NCBI RefSeq assembly: GCF_014644435.1 | Contig: NZ_BMKR01000002.1 | Location: 124,001 to 188,000, forward strand | Direction of reading: 5' to 3' | Length of the DNA: 64,000 nucleotides | From: Paenibacillus albidus | GTDB taxonomy: Bacteria; Bacillota; Bacilli; Paenibacillales; Paenibacillaceae | Part shown: positions 18,040 through 23,476 of the stretch, one piece after another | How the letters are laid out: the number at the start of each line of letters is the position of its first letter | Position numbering within the stretch: the first letter of the stretch is position 1 | Program-made: the position numbers and the translations under genes | Notes under the pieces: generated by a model | Database searches by the model: none | The model's input: only the letters and a program-made list of their open reading frames with translations | Told to the model about the DNA's origin: nothing

Positions 18040-18078
18040 ACCTCCCGAACATGAGCATATCTGCTCTATTCGGGAGGT
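18040..18078. terminator. Terminator after the helicase operon
   Basis: ACCTCCCGAA / TTCGGGAGGT outer arms with an inner GAGCA / TGCTC stem. T-runs occur on both sides (CTTTTTC on the minus strand, TTTTGTTT on the plus). Confidence 0.88.
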
Positions 18079-18121: not shown

Positions 18122-20320
18122 TCATCCCGGCTGCCGCCACTGTTTAAGCACTTCTACCAGCCCGGGCAAATCCAGCCCGTCCAGCGAAAACGCCTTACGT
18201 ACCAGCTCATGCGGAATGAATTCATCGTATTTGCCTAAATAGGGGGCTTCATCCGGTGCCAGCAGGGTCAACGGGTCAGCCGCAGCCGAAGTTTCGGCGA
18301 TAATCTCCGCCTCCAGCGTTTCCGCAGTGGTTGTCCCCGCTACAACCATATAATACGGTTCCATCGGCACGATGGAGCGCAGACCAAGCGGGCCTTTGAG
18401 ATTGTTCTTGAGCAGCCGCTCCAGCGTACGGAACTGCCGGCTCCCGGCCCAAGGCAGAATGAACATGGAATCCCCGCCCGCCGGCAGCACGGAGCGCTGG
18501 AGGAGGCCGCTCTCCTTCGCCAGACGGCGGGCCCGTTCCAGGCGGGCGGCGGCGCTCGGAGCCAAGTATGGATACAGCGCCGTTGCCCCCAGCACCTCGC
18601 GGATCTTATTCATAATGCGGGTGTGCACATCGCCCCCTGCTCCCAGCCATAAGGTGTCTACCTTACCGCGTGAAGTCTTCACATACACAGCCTTGTGGCG
18701 GTTGTCCACCTCTTCCACCTTCCACAGCTTCCCGGCCAGTGTGAAACAATATCCCGGCGGCGGAACCGTAGTAATTGAACCGATTTCCTCTGTTCCGTTG
18801 TAGACCACATGCTCCTCATCGTCCTTGAATACCGCGTAGAAACGGAAGTTATTGACGATCTTCTCGCCAGCCATGCCGATAATCAGACTGCCCTCATCCA
18901 TCCGTTCAATTTGGCCCATGCCCAGCATATAGGTCATGAACGCTTCATAGTCGGCCGGTTCGATGCCTTGGAAGGACGGCAGACTGAGTACGGCCTCCTG
19001 TAGCTCCTCCGGCTCCGCCTCGCCCATGCTCTTAAGGATGCTCATCGTCTGGTGGTACAAAAGCCCGATCGGCAGCTGCCGCACAACAAGCGGCTCCACC
19101 CATTTCTCGCGTACATACAGCTCGATTACCGCAATCGCCCGCAGCAATGTCCATGGCATGCGGGCAGGCAGCTGCGCCTCCTCATCTTCTTCCTCGGGCG
19201 TGACGAAGATCATCTCGGAGGCTGCGTCGCCGCGCCTCCCTGAGCGTCCCAGCCGCTGCACAAAGCTGGCGCAGCTGTACGGGGCCCCGAGCTGGAGCAC
19301 ACGCTCCAGCTCGCCCAGGTCAATGCCCAGCTCCAGCGTCAGGGTCGCTGCCGCCACCGCCGGACCGGAGCCTTGCCGCAGCGCGGCCTCCGTCTCCTCA
19401 CGCAGCATCGCGGAGATGCTGCCGTGGTGGACGTGGAACACGTCCCGCTGGCTGCGCTTCGCGGCAATCCGCCGCATCTCCAGAATCGCCGTCTCGGCAT
19501 CCGTGCGGCTGTTGGTGAAGATCAGCGCTTTTTTGAGATGGGTATGATCGTAGATAAAGTCATGATAGGACTGCTTGGCCCGCTCCAGCGCCTCGGCCTG
19601 CACCTCATCCCGCGCATCCGGGAAGGAGAAATGCTCCACGCTGAGGCGCAGCTTGCGCCCGCCTTGCGGAGCAGACACCTCCACTCGCTCGCGTGTCCCC
19701 GCTGCCAGCCATTTCGTGACCGAATCGTAGTCGCTAAGCGTAGCGGACAGACCGATTCGGCGCGGATAGCAGCCGGCCATCCGCGAGATCCGCGCCAGCT
19801 GGCTGAGCACCTGAATGCCGCGGTCAGCTCCCATGAACGCATGCACTTCATCGACCACGATGAAGCGCAGATCATGGAATAGCGCCGGAATGGCATTCGG
19901 GCGGTTCATGAGCAGGCCTTCAAGAGATTCCGGAGTAATCTGCAGAACACCGGAAGGATTCTGCACCAGCCTGGTCTTGTCCGCCTGGGGTACATCACCA
20001 TGCCAATGCCAGACCGGAATGTGCCCTTCCCGCAGCAGATCGTTCAGACGCGTAAACTGGTCGTTAATCAGTGCCTTCAGCGGAGCTATATACAGAATGC
20101 CTACAGAACCGGAAGGACGTTCATACAGCTCCGTCAGCGCGGGAAAAAAAGCCGCCTCCGTCTTGCCCGAAGCCGTCCCGGAAGCTATCAACAGATGATG
20201 CGGCGTATCGAACAGGATGCGGCAGGCATCCACTTGGGCCTCGCGGAGCGTCTCCCAGCGGTTCTTATAGATGAACTCCTTGATGAACGGTGCCAGCCGG
20301 TAGAATGGATTGTCGCTCAT
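18122..20320 (-). CDS. DEAD/DEAH superfamily II helicase, Lhr/BrxHI-like
   Basis: A 732-residue ATP-dependent helicase. Motif I SGTASGKTE (47-55), Ia IAPLKAL, II DEVH (157-160), III LSATL (about 191-195), IV IFTNSRTDAE and VI FVQRLGRSGRRG (about 363-374) are all present. The C-terminal half resembles the accessory region of Lhr-type helicases, but the protein is half the size of bacterial Lhr and close to BrxHI of type 2 BREX. Its ATG overlaps the stop of the ATPase gene by four bases (ATGA). It is the last gene of a three-gene operon with TerB-like and BrxD-like genes. Confidence 0.88.
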   Translation of the reverse strand: MSDNPFYRLAPFIKEFIYKNRWETLREAQVDACRILFDTPHHLLIASGTASGKTEAAFFPALTELYERPSGSVGILYIAPLKALINDQFTRLNDLLREGHIPVWHWHGDVPQADKTRLVQNPSGVLQITPESLEGLLMNRPNAIPALFHDLRFIVVDEVHAFMGADRGIQVLSQLARISRMAGCYPRRIGLSATLSDYDSVTKWLAAGTRERVEVSAPQGGRKLRLSVEHFSFPDARDEVQAEALERAKQSYHDFIYDHTHLKKALIFTNSRTDAETAILEMRRIAAKRSQRDVFHVHHGSISAMLREETEAALRQGSGPAVAAATLTLELGIDLGELERVLQLGAPYSCASFVQRLGRSGRRGDAASEMIFVTPEEEDEEAQLPARMPWTLLRAIAVIELYVREKWVEPLVVRQLPIGLLYHQTMSILKSMGEAEPEELQEAVLSLPSFQGIEPADYEAFMTYMLGMGQIERMDEGSLIIGMAGEKIVNNFRFYAVFKDDEEHVVYNGTEEIGSITTVPPPGYCFTLAGKLWKVEEVDNRHKAVYVKTSRGKVDTLWLGAGGDVHTRIMNKIREVLGATALYPYLAPSAAARLERARRLAKESGLLQRSVLPAGGDSMFILPWAGSRQFRTLERLLKNNLKGPLGLRSIVPMEPYYMVVAGTTTAETLEAEIIAETSAAADPLTLLAPDEAPYLGKYDEFIPHELVRKAFSLDGLDLPGLVEVLKQWRQPG

Positions 20321-21639
20321 AGCTCAAACTCCGCCAGGAAGCCGTCCAATTCATTGTCCCCGCTATCCTCGTTTTTGGTTGTCGTGCGTTCCCCCACCAG
20401 CTTCTCGAACGACATCTCCGGGTGCTGATGCAAGGTGTGCAGCAGATCCATGAAGTCACGTACCACTTCACGCGCAGTCAGCAGCTCATCCGCCCCCAGA
20501 CGGCCGACGGCCTCCTCCATGAAATGCACCAGCTGCTCCTGTGTCAAGGCCGCCGTATAACCATAGTGCAAAGCATGAATGTCCCGCAGCTTCTGGAGCA
20601 GCACCAGAATTTCCTCGTGGGAGAGCATGTCCAGTGCGATGATCGGTCCGGTATAGTTGTTCACGCCCGCGGCGCCGTACCGTCCGGCCACCAGCCGGGA
20701 ACGGAGCGCTTCATAGCTGAACAGCCCGCGGCGTCCGTCCTCCACGAATTGCGGGGTCCCCCCCAGAAAGATCCCCAGATGTTCAGCTTTGCCCTGCATC
20801 GTATCGTTGAACATCGTCAGCAGCTTCTCATAGTTGCTCTGCCGGGAGATGCTGTTTGTGATTTTATATAGATTCACACCTTCGTCGATGAACAGCAGCA
20901 GACCTTTGTAGCCGATCGCTGCAGTGAACTCCGCCCATAACTTCATATAGTCATACCAGTTATCGTCGTCGATAATGACGCCTACACCAAGCGCCTTCCG
21001 CGCTTCTGTACGGGTCGCAAATTCACCGCGCAGCCAGCGCAGCGCATCTTGCTTCAAGTCATCTTCGGCCAGCTTATGCCCATTCCAGTAAGAGGCCAGC
21101 ACTTTGGCGAAATCAAAGCCATGCACAAGTCCCCGCATCTCCGAAGCCACGGCATAGATCCGTTTCTCCACCTCTTCCCCCAGCTGCGGATGGTCAGGGG
21201 TATAATTCTTCTCCTGCATAACCGTCTGCTGCAGCGTAAAGATCCATTTCTGTAAAATCACTTCCAGAGCGCCGCCATCCGGCCGCGTCCGGGTCGAGAG
21301 ATGGCTCATCAGCTCACGGTAGGTGGACAGGCCTTGCCCTTTGGTTCCGACCAGCCTCCGCTCCGGCGAAAGATCGGCATCTGCCACGACGAATTCCCGG
21401 TCCATCGCATAGTTGCGGATGATTTGCAGCAGGAAGCTTTTGCCGCTGCCGAATTTACCCGTAATCAGCTTAAAAGCAGCTCCGCCTTCGGCGATGTTCT
21501 CCATATCTCTCAGGATCGCTTCGACTTCCGGCCGCCGTCCCACCGCAATATGCTCCAGCCCGATCCGCGGAACCACTCCCGCAGTCAGCGAGTTGACCAG
21601 CGCCGTTGTCATTCGTTTGGGTATTCTTAGTTCACTCAT
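20317..21639 (-). CDS. BrxD-like P-loop ATPase (DUF2791)
   Basis: A 440-residue ATPase. Start of the conserved domain is GVVPRIGLEHIAVGR (about 21-35), with Walker A GKFGSGKS (61-68) and a Walker B-like LLLFIDEG near 235. This matches DUF2791, the family of BrxD in type 2 BREX. The ATG at 21639 is preferred because AGAGGTGA sits eight bases upstream; a GTG at 21651 would overlap the preceding gene but lacks spacing. It lies between TerB-like and helicase genes. No pglX, pglZ or methylase is present, so it is not a standard BREX. Confidence 0.85.
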   Translation of the reverse strand: MSELRIPKRMTTALVNSLTAGVVPRIGLEHIAVGRRPEVEAILRDMENIAEGGAAFKLITGKFGSGKSFLLQIIRNYAMDREFVVADADLSPERRLVGTKGQGLSTYRELMSHLSTRTRPDGGALEVILQKWIFTLQQTVMQEKNYTPDHPQLGEEVEKRIYAVASEMRGLVHGFDFAKVLASYWNGHKLAEDDLKQDALRWLRGEFATRTEARKALGVGVIIDDDNWYDYMKLWAEFTAAIGYKGLLLFIDEGVNLYKITNSISRQSNYEKLLTMFNDTMQGKAEHLGIFLGGTPQFVEDGRRGLFSYEALRSRLVAGRYGAAGVNNYTGPIIALDMLSHEEILVLLQKLRDIHALHYGYTAALTQEQLVHFMEEAVGRLGADELLTAREVVRDFMDLLHTLHQHPEMSFEKLVGERTTTKNEDSGDNELDGFLAEFEL

Positions 21640-21647
21640 TCCGTCGT

Positions 21648-23309
21648 TCACCTCTTCAAAGTTGACAGCATAGGCACAAATTCCTCGGTGATCTCTTCCC
21701 CGTCAATCAAAAGGTCTCCGAGTATGTCCATAGCAAGTTCATTAATCTCATCCATCAGCAGCTCCGGCATCGTTCCGTGTGCCGCAGCCAATCTGTCCAT
21801 ACCCTCCAGCCCGTCTCCCTGGGCCAGGGCAGACACAACTTCCCTCTGCAGAGGAGTAAGCCCGCTCATGAACTGCTCCCATTCTGTACCTGGATCCGCA
21901 GACAGGGCTGGCGGCACAGGCCCCGAAGGCTCCGCAGATCGGGCCGCCGGCGCAATGTCCCTGGGAACCTCTCCAACATCAGCAACATCGGACATCCGTC
22001 TAACTGCGGGTTCGCTTTGATCAGGGTTCTGCCTCTTTATCACCGGCAAGTCCGATATCTCCAGCTCCGCTCCGTTGTCCGCAGAGTCAGAAAAGAGTGT
22101 ATCGTCTATCGTAAGCATGCTGCGCACAATCTCCGAATCCTGCTCCAGACGGGTAAGCTTCTCCTGGTCGATAACAACTGCCGGCCCGTTCTGCTCCTGC
22201 TCGGCCTTCCGGAATTCCCGTTGCAGGAAACGGGTAACCAGTGTTTCCATATCCGCATCCACATTCACTCCCTTAAGCCGGCCCCGGAAGCCCATCAGCT
22301 CACGCAGCTTATTCTCGGTCAACCGGAACAAACGGGTAACGAGGCTGCGCAGCGGCTGGGACTTGCTGATCCGCACGACCGGTACAAGAACAGAATATCC
22401 GTACAGGGAGATGTCATAGACGGCGCTGCGGAACAAATACCGTTCCCGCATCACCGGAGGTCCCGGAGGGAACATCTCCACCAGCTTAGAGCCTTGCTTG
22501 CGGGCGACATAGGCGTCAATAAGGGCCACTACCTGCGGAATATACTGCTCGCAGGCCTCTTTTCCGTCACCTGTATAGAATTTGGACTTGCTGATATCAT
22601 AATCGGAAAGCGCTGTAAGCACGGGAAAAGTCAGCTCCTCAGGACAGGAGGACAGACAGCGCATAAGCTCCAGCTCCGCCAAGTCTCCGGCCAGGCCGCG
22701 CGAACGGGCCACAATGACCGATAACGGAATATCCAGGTGGTGCACAAAAGAAAAATCCGCAATCCAGCCGCCCAAATATTGATCCAGACGTTTATACTGG
22801 GCCCGGTAAGCTTCCCATATGCGGTTCAACTGGCCATAACCGTCCAGCGGTTCCTTCCAGCCGACCCCATTAATCAATTCATAGACATGCAGGAATATGT
22901 AAGACAGATCCGTCTTCGGATATCTGCCCTGCCGCACCTCATTCCGCCAATAGAAATACCACCTGCTCTGCACACCTGTCATATGTCCATAGTTTGGCCA
23001 ATAGCTTTTGAAAGGAACAAATAAGGAAGCCGGTTCTTTCCGGTCTTCCAATTCCCTGGCCCGCTTGGTGAACTGCGCCTCGGTGGTGGTCACCGGCTCA
23101 TGCTCCTGCTCCTCACTGTCCCAGAGTGACAGCTGTACATTGGCTTGCGGGGCTGCCCCCGCCGCTTTTGGCGGCTTCGCACTCTGCGTTTGCCCCGGCG
23201 CCGGGAGCTTCGGCTGCTCCTGTGACCCGCGTGGAGGAATGGCTACATTCTGTTCCGTGCTCTCAAAGATTAATTCCGTGAAATGCGGCTGCCGCCCTTC
23301 CTTGCTCAT
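21648..23309 (-). CDS. TerB_N/TerB_C domain protein
   Basis: A 553-residue protein. After a low-complexity Pro/Ala/Gln region (about 20-60), residues 115-150 carry SRWYFYWRNEVRQGRY and TDLSYIFLHVYELING, a pattern recognised as TerB_N. An acidic spacer (about 400-460) precedes a C-terminal all-helical segment resembling TerB_C (about 465-553). TerB-family domains bind metal or act as scaffolds in tellurite/stress systems. ATG at 23309 with GGGGAG upstream; a GTG at 23330 lacks a site. First gene of the ATPase-helicase operon. Domain assignment is from memory of the family pattern. Confidence 0.75.
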   Translation of the reverse strand: MSKEGRQPHFTELIFESTEQNVAIPPRGSQEQPKLPAPGQTQSAKPPKAAGAAPQANVQLSLWDSEEQEHEPVTTTEAQFTKRARELEDRKEPASLFVPFKSYWPNYGHMTGVQSRWYFYWRNEVRQGRYPKTDLSYIFLHVYELINGVGWKEPLDGYGQLNRIWEAYRAQYKRLDQYLGGWIADFSFVHHLDIPLSVIVARSRGLAGDLAELELMRCLSSCPEELTFPVLTALSDYDISKSKFYTGDGKEACEQYIPQVVALIDAYVARKQGSKLVEMFPPGPPVMRERYLFRSAVYDISLYGYSVLVPVVRISKSQPLRSLVTRLFRLTENKLRELMGFRGRLKGVNVDADMETLVTRFLQREFRKAEQEQNGPAVVIDQEKLTRLEQDSEIVRSMLTIDDTLFSDSADNGAELEISDLPVIKRQNPDQSEPAVRRMSDVADVGEVPRDIAPAARSAEPSGPVPPALSADPGTEWEQFMSGLTPLQREVVSALAQGDGLEGMDRLAAAHGTMPELLMDEINELAMDILGDLLIDGEEITEEFVPMLSTLKR

Positions 23310-23356
23310 CTGCCATCTCTCCCCGAACACCTGTTCATTCCTTATTTAGCAAAAAG

Positions 23357-23391
23357 AAACGGCCCTGTTCACATGCGTGAAAGAACCGTTT
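23357..23391 (-). terminator. Hairpin with T-run before the TerB operon
   Basis: Arms AAACGG / CCGTTT with inner TTCAC / GTGAA, followed on the minus strand by CTTTTTG. It lies after the niaP gene but also after a possible promoter, so it may end niaP transcripts, attenuate the TerB operon, or both. Confidence 0.75.
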
Positions 23392-23446
23392 GGTGTTTTG
23401 TCTGCCTGCTTGATTGTGCTGCCCAGCCGCCTGTCTCGTATCTATA

Positions 23447-23476
23447 ATATTATCATTGTTACTAGATTAACATCAA
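23447..23476 (-). promoter_or_regulatory. Possible promoter of the TerB-ATPase-helicase operon
   Basis: TTGATG (23471-23476) and TAATAT (23447-23452) on the minus strand, 18 bases apart, in the gap between niaP and the TerB-like gene and upstream of the hairpin. Confidence 0.45.

What the first reader, a model, noticed from the sequence alone, without database searches (positions are those of the whole stretch)
18122..23476. TerB-like / BrxD-like / Lhr-type helicase operon: candidate uncharacterised defence or DNA-processing module
Seen: three minus-strand genes with four-base or shorter junctions, own terminator and possible promoter. Products carry a TerB_N-type core, a DUF2791 P-loop ATPase and a complete SF2 helicase. 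Known: BrxD and BrxHI (Lhr-like) occur together in type 2 BREX with PglX, PglZ and PglW; Ter-domain proteins have been linked computationally to stress and phage-restriction systems. Inferred: this is a compact module in which the ATPase and helicase act on nucleic acid and the TerB protein senses or scaffolds, without any methylase, nuclease or phosphatase.
Basis: partly seen in the sequence, partly recalled or inferred. Interest (0 to 1): 0.85.

Follow-up and report, generated by a model that had tools for sequence, protein, structure and literature searches.

The report
Shango defence operon, core in Paenibacillus
The three genes are the known anti-phage system Shango, but in Paenibacillus it is not a patchy, mobile cassette: every sampled species of this genus carries it, usually as one chromosomal copy passed down largely by descent, so it may be a fixed immune or genome-care system.

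Summary
The genes are real and correctly placed. They are not uncharacterised: PADLOC profiles name them SngA, SngB and SngC (E 4e-109, 4e-206, 1e-237), the published Shango system, which restricts phages in Pseudomonas aeruginosa (PMC10250203, passages).

The unexpected part is the distribution. In 100 sampled genomes of the window's genus, SngA and SngB were found in 100 and SngC in 99; the exception's contig ends inside sngB. The BREX marker PglZ passed its cut-off in 12 of the same 100. Outside the family, 12 strong SngB matches appeared in a phylum sample of 348. SngB and SngC trees share 16 and 18 of 32 splits with rpoB; label shuffles share at most 3. Median dN/dS of SngB and SngC is below that of 86% of 102 neighbouring ORF comparisons; SngA's is about five times higher. 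Ten neighbours scanned show no defence gene. SngB relatives elsewhere sit on 692 plasmid records.

Side results: some relatives' SngA carries an extra domain with a Swi2/Snf2 fold that looks catalytically dead; LexA-like boxes are enriched upstream of sngA in some lineages. The mechanism is inferred.

The parts
21648..23330 (-). sngA: protein with TerB_N (residues 76-278) and TerB_C (373-547), fast evolving, disordered N-terminus; likely true start ATG near 23309
   Evidence: PADLOC SngA 365 bits; Pfam PF13208, PF15615; model mb2788e93ea27 mean pLDDT 76, most of residues 1-77 and 413-480 below 50; C-terminal ~80 residues resemble winged-helix/HTH domains, Z 6.0 over 73 residues, a weak match
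20317..21651 (-). sngB: AAA+ ATPase of the BrxC/BrxD family (PF10923); likely true start ATG at 21639
   Evidence: PADLOC SngB 683 bits against BrxD 161; PF10923; Walker A Gly-Ser-Gly-Lys and Walker B Asp-Glu kept in 118 of 118 rows, 109 distinct sequences
18122..20320 (-). sngC: Lhr/BrxHI-like SF2 helicase
   Evidence: PADLOC SngC 790 bits against BrxHI 405; motif I Gly-Lys-Thr, motif II Asp, Glu and His, motif III Ser-Ala-Thr and the motif VI Gln-Arg kept in 117 of 117 rows, 109 distinct sequences
18041..18078 (-). intrinsic terminator of the operon (long stem, T-rich tail on the minus strand)
   Evidence: -33.2 kcal/mol, z -6.8; not listed by the simple scan
23357..23392 (-). hairpin between the upstream MFS gene and sngA, kept in several close relatives; probably the terminator of the upstream gene (inference)
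   Evidence: alignment
23324..23337 (.). LexA/DinR-like box CGAACACCTGTTCA just upstream of the likely sngA start; not kept in the nearest relatives
   Evidence: one mismatch to CGAACN4GTTCG, 4 such sites in the window with 1.5 expected; 12.1 bits, weakest lexA-promoter box 12.5; not conserved

Best explanation
This is a complete Shango operon (sngABC) that entered an ancestor of part of the Paenibacillaceae and has since been kept, in this genus as a core gene set, by largely vertical descent. Proposed working: SngB, by homology with BrxD an ORC/Cdc6-like AAA+ ATPase, loads the Lhr/BrxHI-like helicase SngC onto target DNA; SngA (TerB core plus a winged-helix-like tail) picks the target or triggers loading; ATP-driven translocation then blocks or exposes invading DNA, which host nucleases finish off. 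Shown here: gene identity, intact motor motifs, co-retention, core distribution, strong purifying selection on SngB and SngC, faster SngA. Inferred: loading, target choice by SngA, use of host nucleases, and that phage or plasmid DNA is the main target in Paenibacillus. My odds: identity 0.97, core status 0.95, still chiefly defence 0.6, this loading mechanism 0.4.
For: Profile identity and motif conservation. In 100 genomes of the genus: SngA in 100, SngB in 100 (93 as whole frames), SngC at 750 bits or more in 98 and in part in one more. Tree agreement with rpoB and between SngB and SngC. One Paenibacillaceae clade, support 100/99. Shared upstream genes in 12 of 41 loci. Co-occurrence in 25 hand-picked genomes: SngA in 19 of 19 SngB-positive and 0 of 6 SngB-negative, including two where sngA lies about 15 kb away from sngBC. 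Median omega 0.031 (B, 12 pairs), 0.031 (C, 11 pairs), 0.169 (A, 12 pairs). Anti-phage activity of a relative: passages of PMC10250203. Loader proposal for the BrxD/BrxHI pair: passages of PMC12839542. Five of 13 plasmid Shango loci lie near DNA-end-processing genes.
Against: Universal retention in the genus, housekeeping neighbours and low omega fit a housekeeping role as well as immunity. I found no test of a Paenibacillus Shango. Five of 100 genomes have SngB in pieces (two inspected), possibly errors, possibly loss. Tree agreement is incomplete (about half the splits; cophenetic r 0.57 and 0.52) and the operon sits at different places in different lineages, so some transfer or movement occurred. 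Ten of 19 sampled genera of the family lack SngB and one more has only a weak match. The 13 plasmid loci were hand-picked, without a background rate, and several nuclease assignments are below curated cut-offs.
Confidence: 0.7

Rival explanations
1. Domesticated genome-care system: in Paenibacillaceae SngABC has become a chromosomal DNA-repair or replication-rescue machine, in some lineages under SOS control, and phage defence is secondary or lost.
For: Core in the genus, omega of SngB and SngC lower than 86% of 102 flanking ORF comparisons; housekeeping neighbours; LexA-like sites of 10 bits or more upstream of sngA in 23 of 78 loci against 20 of 857 other genes, and of 12.5 bits or more (the weakest lexA box) in 8 of 78 against 7 of 857; 5 of 16 clusters at 85% SngB identity have a median of 10 bits or more; SngC has a sub-threshold match to the ligase-associated DNA-damage helicase model, 216 bits against a cut-off of 850.
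Against: Ten of 19 sampled genera of the same family lack it, so it is dispensable there; SngA evolves fast; the box in the window is not kept in its nearest relatives; kin elsewhere are plasmid-borne and one was tested as anti-phage.
Confidence: 0.25
2. A type 2 BREX remnant or an incomplete BREX locus that kept only BrxD and BrxHI.
For: Second-best PADLOC matches are BrxD and BrxHI.
Against: SngB 683 against BrxD 161 bits; NCBIfam BREX_BrxD 166 bits against a cut-off of 350; no PglZ match in the window's genome.
Confidence: 0.02
3. A tellurite or stress resistance locus of the Ter type.
For: TerB_N and TerB_C domains.
Against: None of the ten neighbouring proteins scanned is a Ter protein by Pfam; the motor pair is that of Shango.
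Confidence: 0.03

Closest known systems
Shango (SngABC), tested in P. aeruginosa PA14 and, per that paper, in E. coli
   Same: Same three proteins in the same order, best PADLOC matches by a wide margin; an E. coli plasmid copy hits the same three profiles. The PA14 sequence itself was not at hand.
   Different: SngB identity to the E. coli plasmid copy is about 40%; Paenibacillaceae copies form their own clade and are core in this genus rather than plasmid or hotspot cargo; SngA is shorter (560 against 769 aa) or, in some relatives, carries an extra pseudo-Snf2 domain.
Type 2 BREX BrxD and BrxHI pair
   Same: Homologous ATPase and helicase; proposed loader-helicase pair (PMC12839542, passages).
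   Different: No PglZ in the window's genome, no BREX gene among the neighbours scanned; SngA (TerB) instead.
Lhr-type and ligase-associated DEXH helicases
   Same: SF2 core plus a winged-helix-like region (PF19306 match below its cut-off).
   Different: Far below curated cut-offs; encoded in an operon with SngA and SngB.
Zorya ZorD
   Same: The extra N-terminal domain of long SngA proteins has the Swi2/Snf2 lobe also found in ZorD (Z 13.7, 173 residues, 3.6 A).
   Different: The SngA domain lacks the P-loop lysine and DEAH box (sequences), and is absent from the window's SngA.

Membership tests
Shango | TerB-domain protein matching SngA | tested here: met
   PDLC03958, 365 bits
Shango | AAA+ ATPase matching SngB, intact Walker motifs | tested here: met
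   PDLC03959, 683 bits; motifs in 118 of 118 rows
Shango | DEAD/DEAH helicase matching SngC, intact motifs | tested here: met
   PDLC03960, 790 bits; motifs in 117 of 117 rows
Shango | Three genes adjacent, same strand, order A-B-C | tested here: met
Shango | Restricts phage | not testable with these tools
   Shown for PA14 Shango in PMC10250203 (passages); not for Paenibacillus
Shango | Borne in a defence island or mobile element (usual, not strictly defining) | tested here: not met
   No PADLOC match in ten neighbours at E 1e-5; vertical signal
Type 2 BREX | PglZ phosphatase present | tested here: not met
   0 matches in the window's genome
Type 2 BREX | BrxD equivalog over the curated cut-off | tested here: not met
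   166 against 350 bits
Ligase-associated DEXH helicase (TIGR04121) | Score over the curated cut-off | tested here: not met
   216 against 850 bits
LexA (SOS) regulon | LexA box in the promoter | tested here: inconclusive
   Site of 12.1 bits in the window, not conserved in near relatives; enriched in other lineages

The most novel reading that the evidence does not exclude
Shango in Paenibacillaceae is a defence system that became part of the core genome: a fixed, vertically inherited, DNA-damage-linked helicase-loading machine that may guard the chromosome against any aberrant replicating DNA. Its SngA descends from, or recombines with, a form that carried a catalytically dead Swi2/Snf2 lobe. 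If so, the Shango target is a DNA structure or damage state rather than a phage-specific signal.
Probability: 0.3. Interest if true: 0.75.

Novelty: new member of a known kind. Interest (0 to 1): 0.5.

Why it matters
Defence systems are usually patchy and mobile. A Shango operon kept in every sampled species of a genus, with motors more constrained than most neighbouring genes, offers a native chromosomal setting in which the unknown Shango mechanism can be studied, and a clean test of whether immune systems can turn into housekeeping DNA-care systems. Paenibacillus also matters for plant growth and antibiotics (general knowledge), so a genus-wide barrier to phage or plasmid DNA would have practical weight.

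Tried and rejected
Type 2 BREX, a ter operon and a ligase-associated helicase were considered and rejected by profile scores and missing partners. A programmed frameshift in SngB was considered because two genomes (G052, G063) break at nearly the same residue; the two breaks differ in sequence, so decay or sequencing error is likelier. The idea that sngA was lost in G104 (suggested) was wrong: it lies about 15 kb away there and in G134. A profile search of the extra SngA domain against solved structures found nothing (best E 0.82); the fold comparison did. For the window's SngA Foldseek gave nothing at E 0.001 or better, and the second look matched mainly residues 479-560; this does not show a new fold. 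Phage records hold no SngB relative at E 1e-5. A first tree held wrongly read Firmicutes rows and was replaced, which itself warns of long branches meeting between the plasmid type and the divergent copies of G172 and G224. The loci of the genome search were read on one strand only; one search read both.

Rows dropped before counts: of 39 genomes with rpoB, G052 and G063 (sngB in pieces), G041 (short rpoB) and G224 (divergent copy only) before the 35-genome tree; G052, G063 and short ORFs before the motif counts, whose rows partly come from the same genomes (118 rows, 109 distinct sequences for SngB; 117 rows, 109 for SngC); pairs outside the dS limits, whose flanking ORFs were found mechanically and include a few improbable ones with omega near or above 1.
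Full report
Observation. The three minus-strand genes at 18122-23330 are present as described. Pfam gives TerB_N and TerB_C, BrxC_BrxD and a DEAD/Helicase_C protein. The operon ends in a strong hairpin terminator. Its promoter is not distinguishable from chance by a consensus scan. The likely starts are ATG codons a little inside the longest ORFs, so the first junction is probably an 8-base gap and the second a 4-base overlap.

Identity. PADLOC profiles name the proteins SngA, SngB and SngC with large margins over the next families. An E. coli plasmid Shango hits the same profiles. Shango was named and tested in P. aeruginosa (PMC10250203; passages): a 10- to 100-fold drop in plating for many but not all phages on plates, and protection of liquid cultures. 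That paper cites an earlier report of the E. coli system (by recall Millman and colleagues 2022, which I did not see). So the candidate is a known system. In the held library 42 papers hold both 'Shango' and 'phage' (listing, 40 shown, some unrelated). One paper holds both Paenibacillus and Shango, and by its title it is unrelated. A search for Paenibacillus with 'anti-phage defense systems' and DefenseFinder gave two papers, neither on this by title. I therefore found no report of Shango as a Paenibacillus core system in this library; most subscription papers are not in it.

Distribution. In 100 genomes of the window's genus, SngB was found in 100: 93 as whole frames, 2 cut at contig ends (G021, G089) and 5 in pieces (G028, G043, G052, G063, G079). 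SngA was found in 100 (G043 and G061 in pieces). SngC at 750 bits or more was found in 98 and in part in one more (G089). G021 has only a weaker helicase match, and its contig ends inside sngB (the tally of 100 of 100 there counts other helicases too). As a contrast, the BREX marker PglZ passed its cut-off in 12 of the same 100 genomes and scored 78 bits or more in 6. In the family sample 67 of 148 genomes match, one of them weakly, in 9 of 19 genera; so it is not universal in the family. In the order sample 75 of 198 match, 72 of them in the window's family. In the phylum sample 42 of 348 match, but only 18 exceed 500 bits: 6 in the family and 12 outside it. On plasmids, 692 of 72,556 records hold an SngB relative, 449 of them Klebsiella and 542 predicted conjugative. 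I checked gene content in 16 of these, so the 692 are not all proven to be full operons. No phage record matches at E 1e-5.

Inheritance. For 35 genomes, SngB shares 16 of 32 inner splits with rpoB and SngC shares 18; label shuffles share at most 3. SngB and SngC share 22 with each other. Cophenetic correlations are moderate (0.57, 0.52 and 0.63), so the agreement is real but partial. A tree with outside rows puts 23 sampled Paenibacillaceae copies, the window's included, and a P. peoriae plasmid copy in one clade, support 100/99, with four other Firmicutes copies next to it. Copies on plasmid records of Proteobacteria, an actinobacterium (an 11.9-Mb record filed as a plasmid) and a haloarchaeon lie apart, and so do two divergent copies in G172 and G224. 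G172 carries both types; G224 only the divergent one. Upstream genes (MFS transporter, DUF1836, CNNM-type protein) are shared in 12 of 41 loci including the window, while other lineages have other neighbours. So descent is largely vertical, with some movement.

Constraint. In 12 species pairs, median dN/dS is 0.031 for SngB, 0.031 for SngC (11 pairs) and 0.169 for SngA. Of 102 flanking ORF comparisons, 14% lie below the SngB and SngC medians and 83% below the SngA median (ORFs found mechanically). In a second set of pairs the medians are 0.034, 0.032 and 0.160 (15 pairs, partly the same). Catalytic residues of both motors are unchanged in 118 and 117 rows, 109 distinct sequences each. In 25 hand-picked genomes across genera, SngA is present in all 19 that have SngB and in none of 6 that lack it. 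In two genomes sngA sits about 15 kb from sngBC and is still kept.

SngA anatomy. The window's SngA model has a disordered N-terminus, a helical TerB core and a C-terminal part that resembles winged-helix or HTH domains at Z 6.0 over 73 residues, a weak match. In 10 of 45 SngA proteins examined and 10 of 80 loci from named genomes (the two sets overlap, and 8 of the latter 10 are Saccharibacillus), SngA has about 310 more residues in front. Of 20 genomes searched, 5 hold the domain and 15, the window's included, do not. A model of one such protein (L198; mean pLDDT 75, pTM 0.41, parts of this region under 50) matches Swi2/Snf2 ATPases over residues 200-389: Z 13.7, 175 residues, 4.1 A with 1z63, and Z 13.7, 173 residues, 3.6 A with ZorD of Zorya. 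From the sequences the P-loop Gly-Lys-Thr and the DEAH box are not there (the Snf2 motif consensus is recalled). I read it as a dead Snf2 lobe that may hold DNA or a partner. Among plasmid records only the P. peoriae copy has it.

Regulation. The lexA promoters of all 24 genomes tested carry CGAACN4GTTCT boxes. A matrix from 48 lexA boxes, whose weakest scores 12.5 bits, finds sites of 10 bits or more upstream of sngA in 23 of 78 loci and upstream of 20 of 857 other genes in the same loci, and sites of 12.5 bits or more in 8 of 78 and 7 of 857. Most of the 23 are one related site in a single lineage that scores 11.8, below the lexA boxes. Clustered at 85% SngB identity, 5 of 16 clusters have a median of 10 bits or more. 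The window has a 12.1-bit site at 23324-23337, but its nearest relatives do not keep it. SOS control is thus plausible for some lineages and unproven for the window.

Mechanism. BrxD of BREX has been described as an ORC/Cdc6-type AAA+ ATPase that may load the BrxHI helicase (PMC12839542; passages, where BrxHI is called Ski2-like); SngC, BrxHI, DruE and DpdJ were grouped as a possible defence-related helicase clade (PMC12278908; passages). I propose the same division of labour for SngB and SngC, with SngA as target reader. There is no nuclease gene in the window's operon. Of 16 plasmid records fetched, 13 could be judged; L241 was cut at the record's end and two records had no annotation. Five of the 13 have DNA-end-processing genes within the stretch: a PD-(D/E)XK protein and an AddA-like helicase directly downstream (L226), SbcCD (L236), an SbcD-like protein some 6 kb away (L237), an AAA ATPase with an Mre11-like phosphoesterase (L239), and an Mre11/Rad50-like pair with NurA (L242). 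The AddA-like, SbcC-like and one Mre11-like assignment are below the NCBIfam cut-offs; SbcD of L236 is above its subfamily cut-off. The other eight show no such pair, though L227 has a phospholipase-D-like protein and L228 a small phosphoesterase. Without a background rate this is only a lead: SngABC may hand DNA to end-resecting nucleases, which Paenibacillus would supply from its chromosome.

Verdict. A known kind of system in an unusual state. Identity is close to certain. The core status is well supported for this genus. Whether it is still chiefly immunity or has become genome care is open, and can be tested directly by deletion.

Noticed in passing
L198:7203-9992 (+), L216, L204, L205, L207, L208, L210, L213, L214, L215; L061, L097, L073: SngA of some relatives carries an extra N-terminal domain with a Swi2/Snf2 fold but without the catalytic motifs.
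   Followed up: yes
L226, L236, L237, L239, L242: Plasmid Shango operons near AddA-like, SbcCD or Mre11/Rad50-type DNA-end-processing genes, several below curated cut-offs.
   Followed up: partly
L094 (G172) and L095 (G224): Divergent SngABC sets, 43-48% SngB identity to the window; G172 also has a core-type set.
   Followed up: partly
L069 (G052) and L096 (G063): sngB broken in frame near residue 220 in two relatives whose sngA and sngC give long ORFs; decay or sequencing error.
   Followed up: partly
G104:C27 and G134:C14: sngA separated from sngBC by about 15 kb yet retained; what lies between was not examined.
   Followed up: no
L214, L215 and other Saccharibacillus loci: SngB carries a long C-terminal tail of biased composition (646-687 aa in all in these two).
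   Followed up: no
window 23324-23337: LexA/DinR-like box just upstream of the likely sngA start; similar sites are enriched upstream of sngA in other lineages.
   Followed up: yes
L227 (P. peoriae plasmid, NZ_CP011513.1): A plasmid-borne Shango of the Paenibacillaceae clade, 65% SngB identity to the window, with a long SngA.
   Followed up: partly
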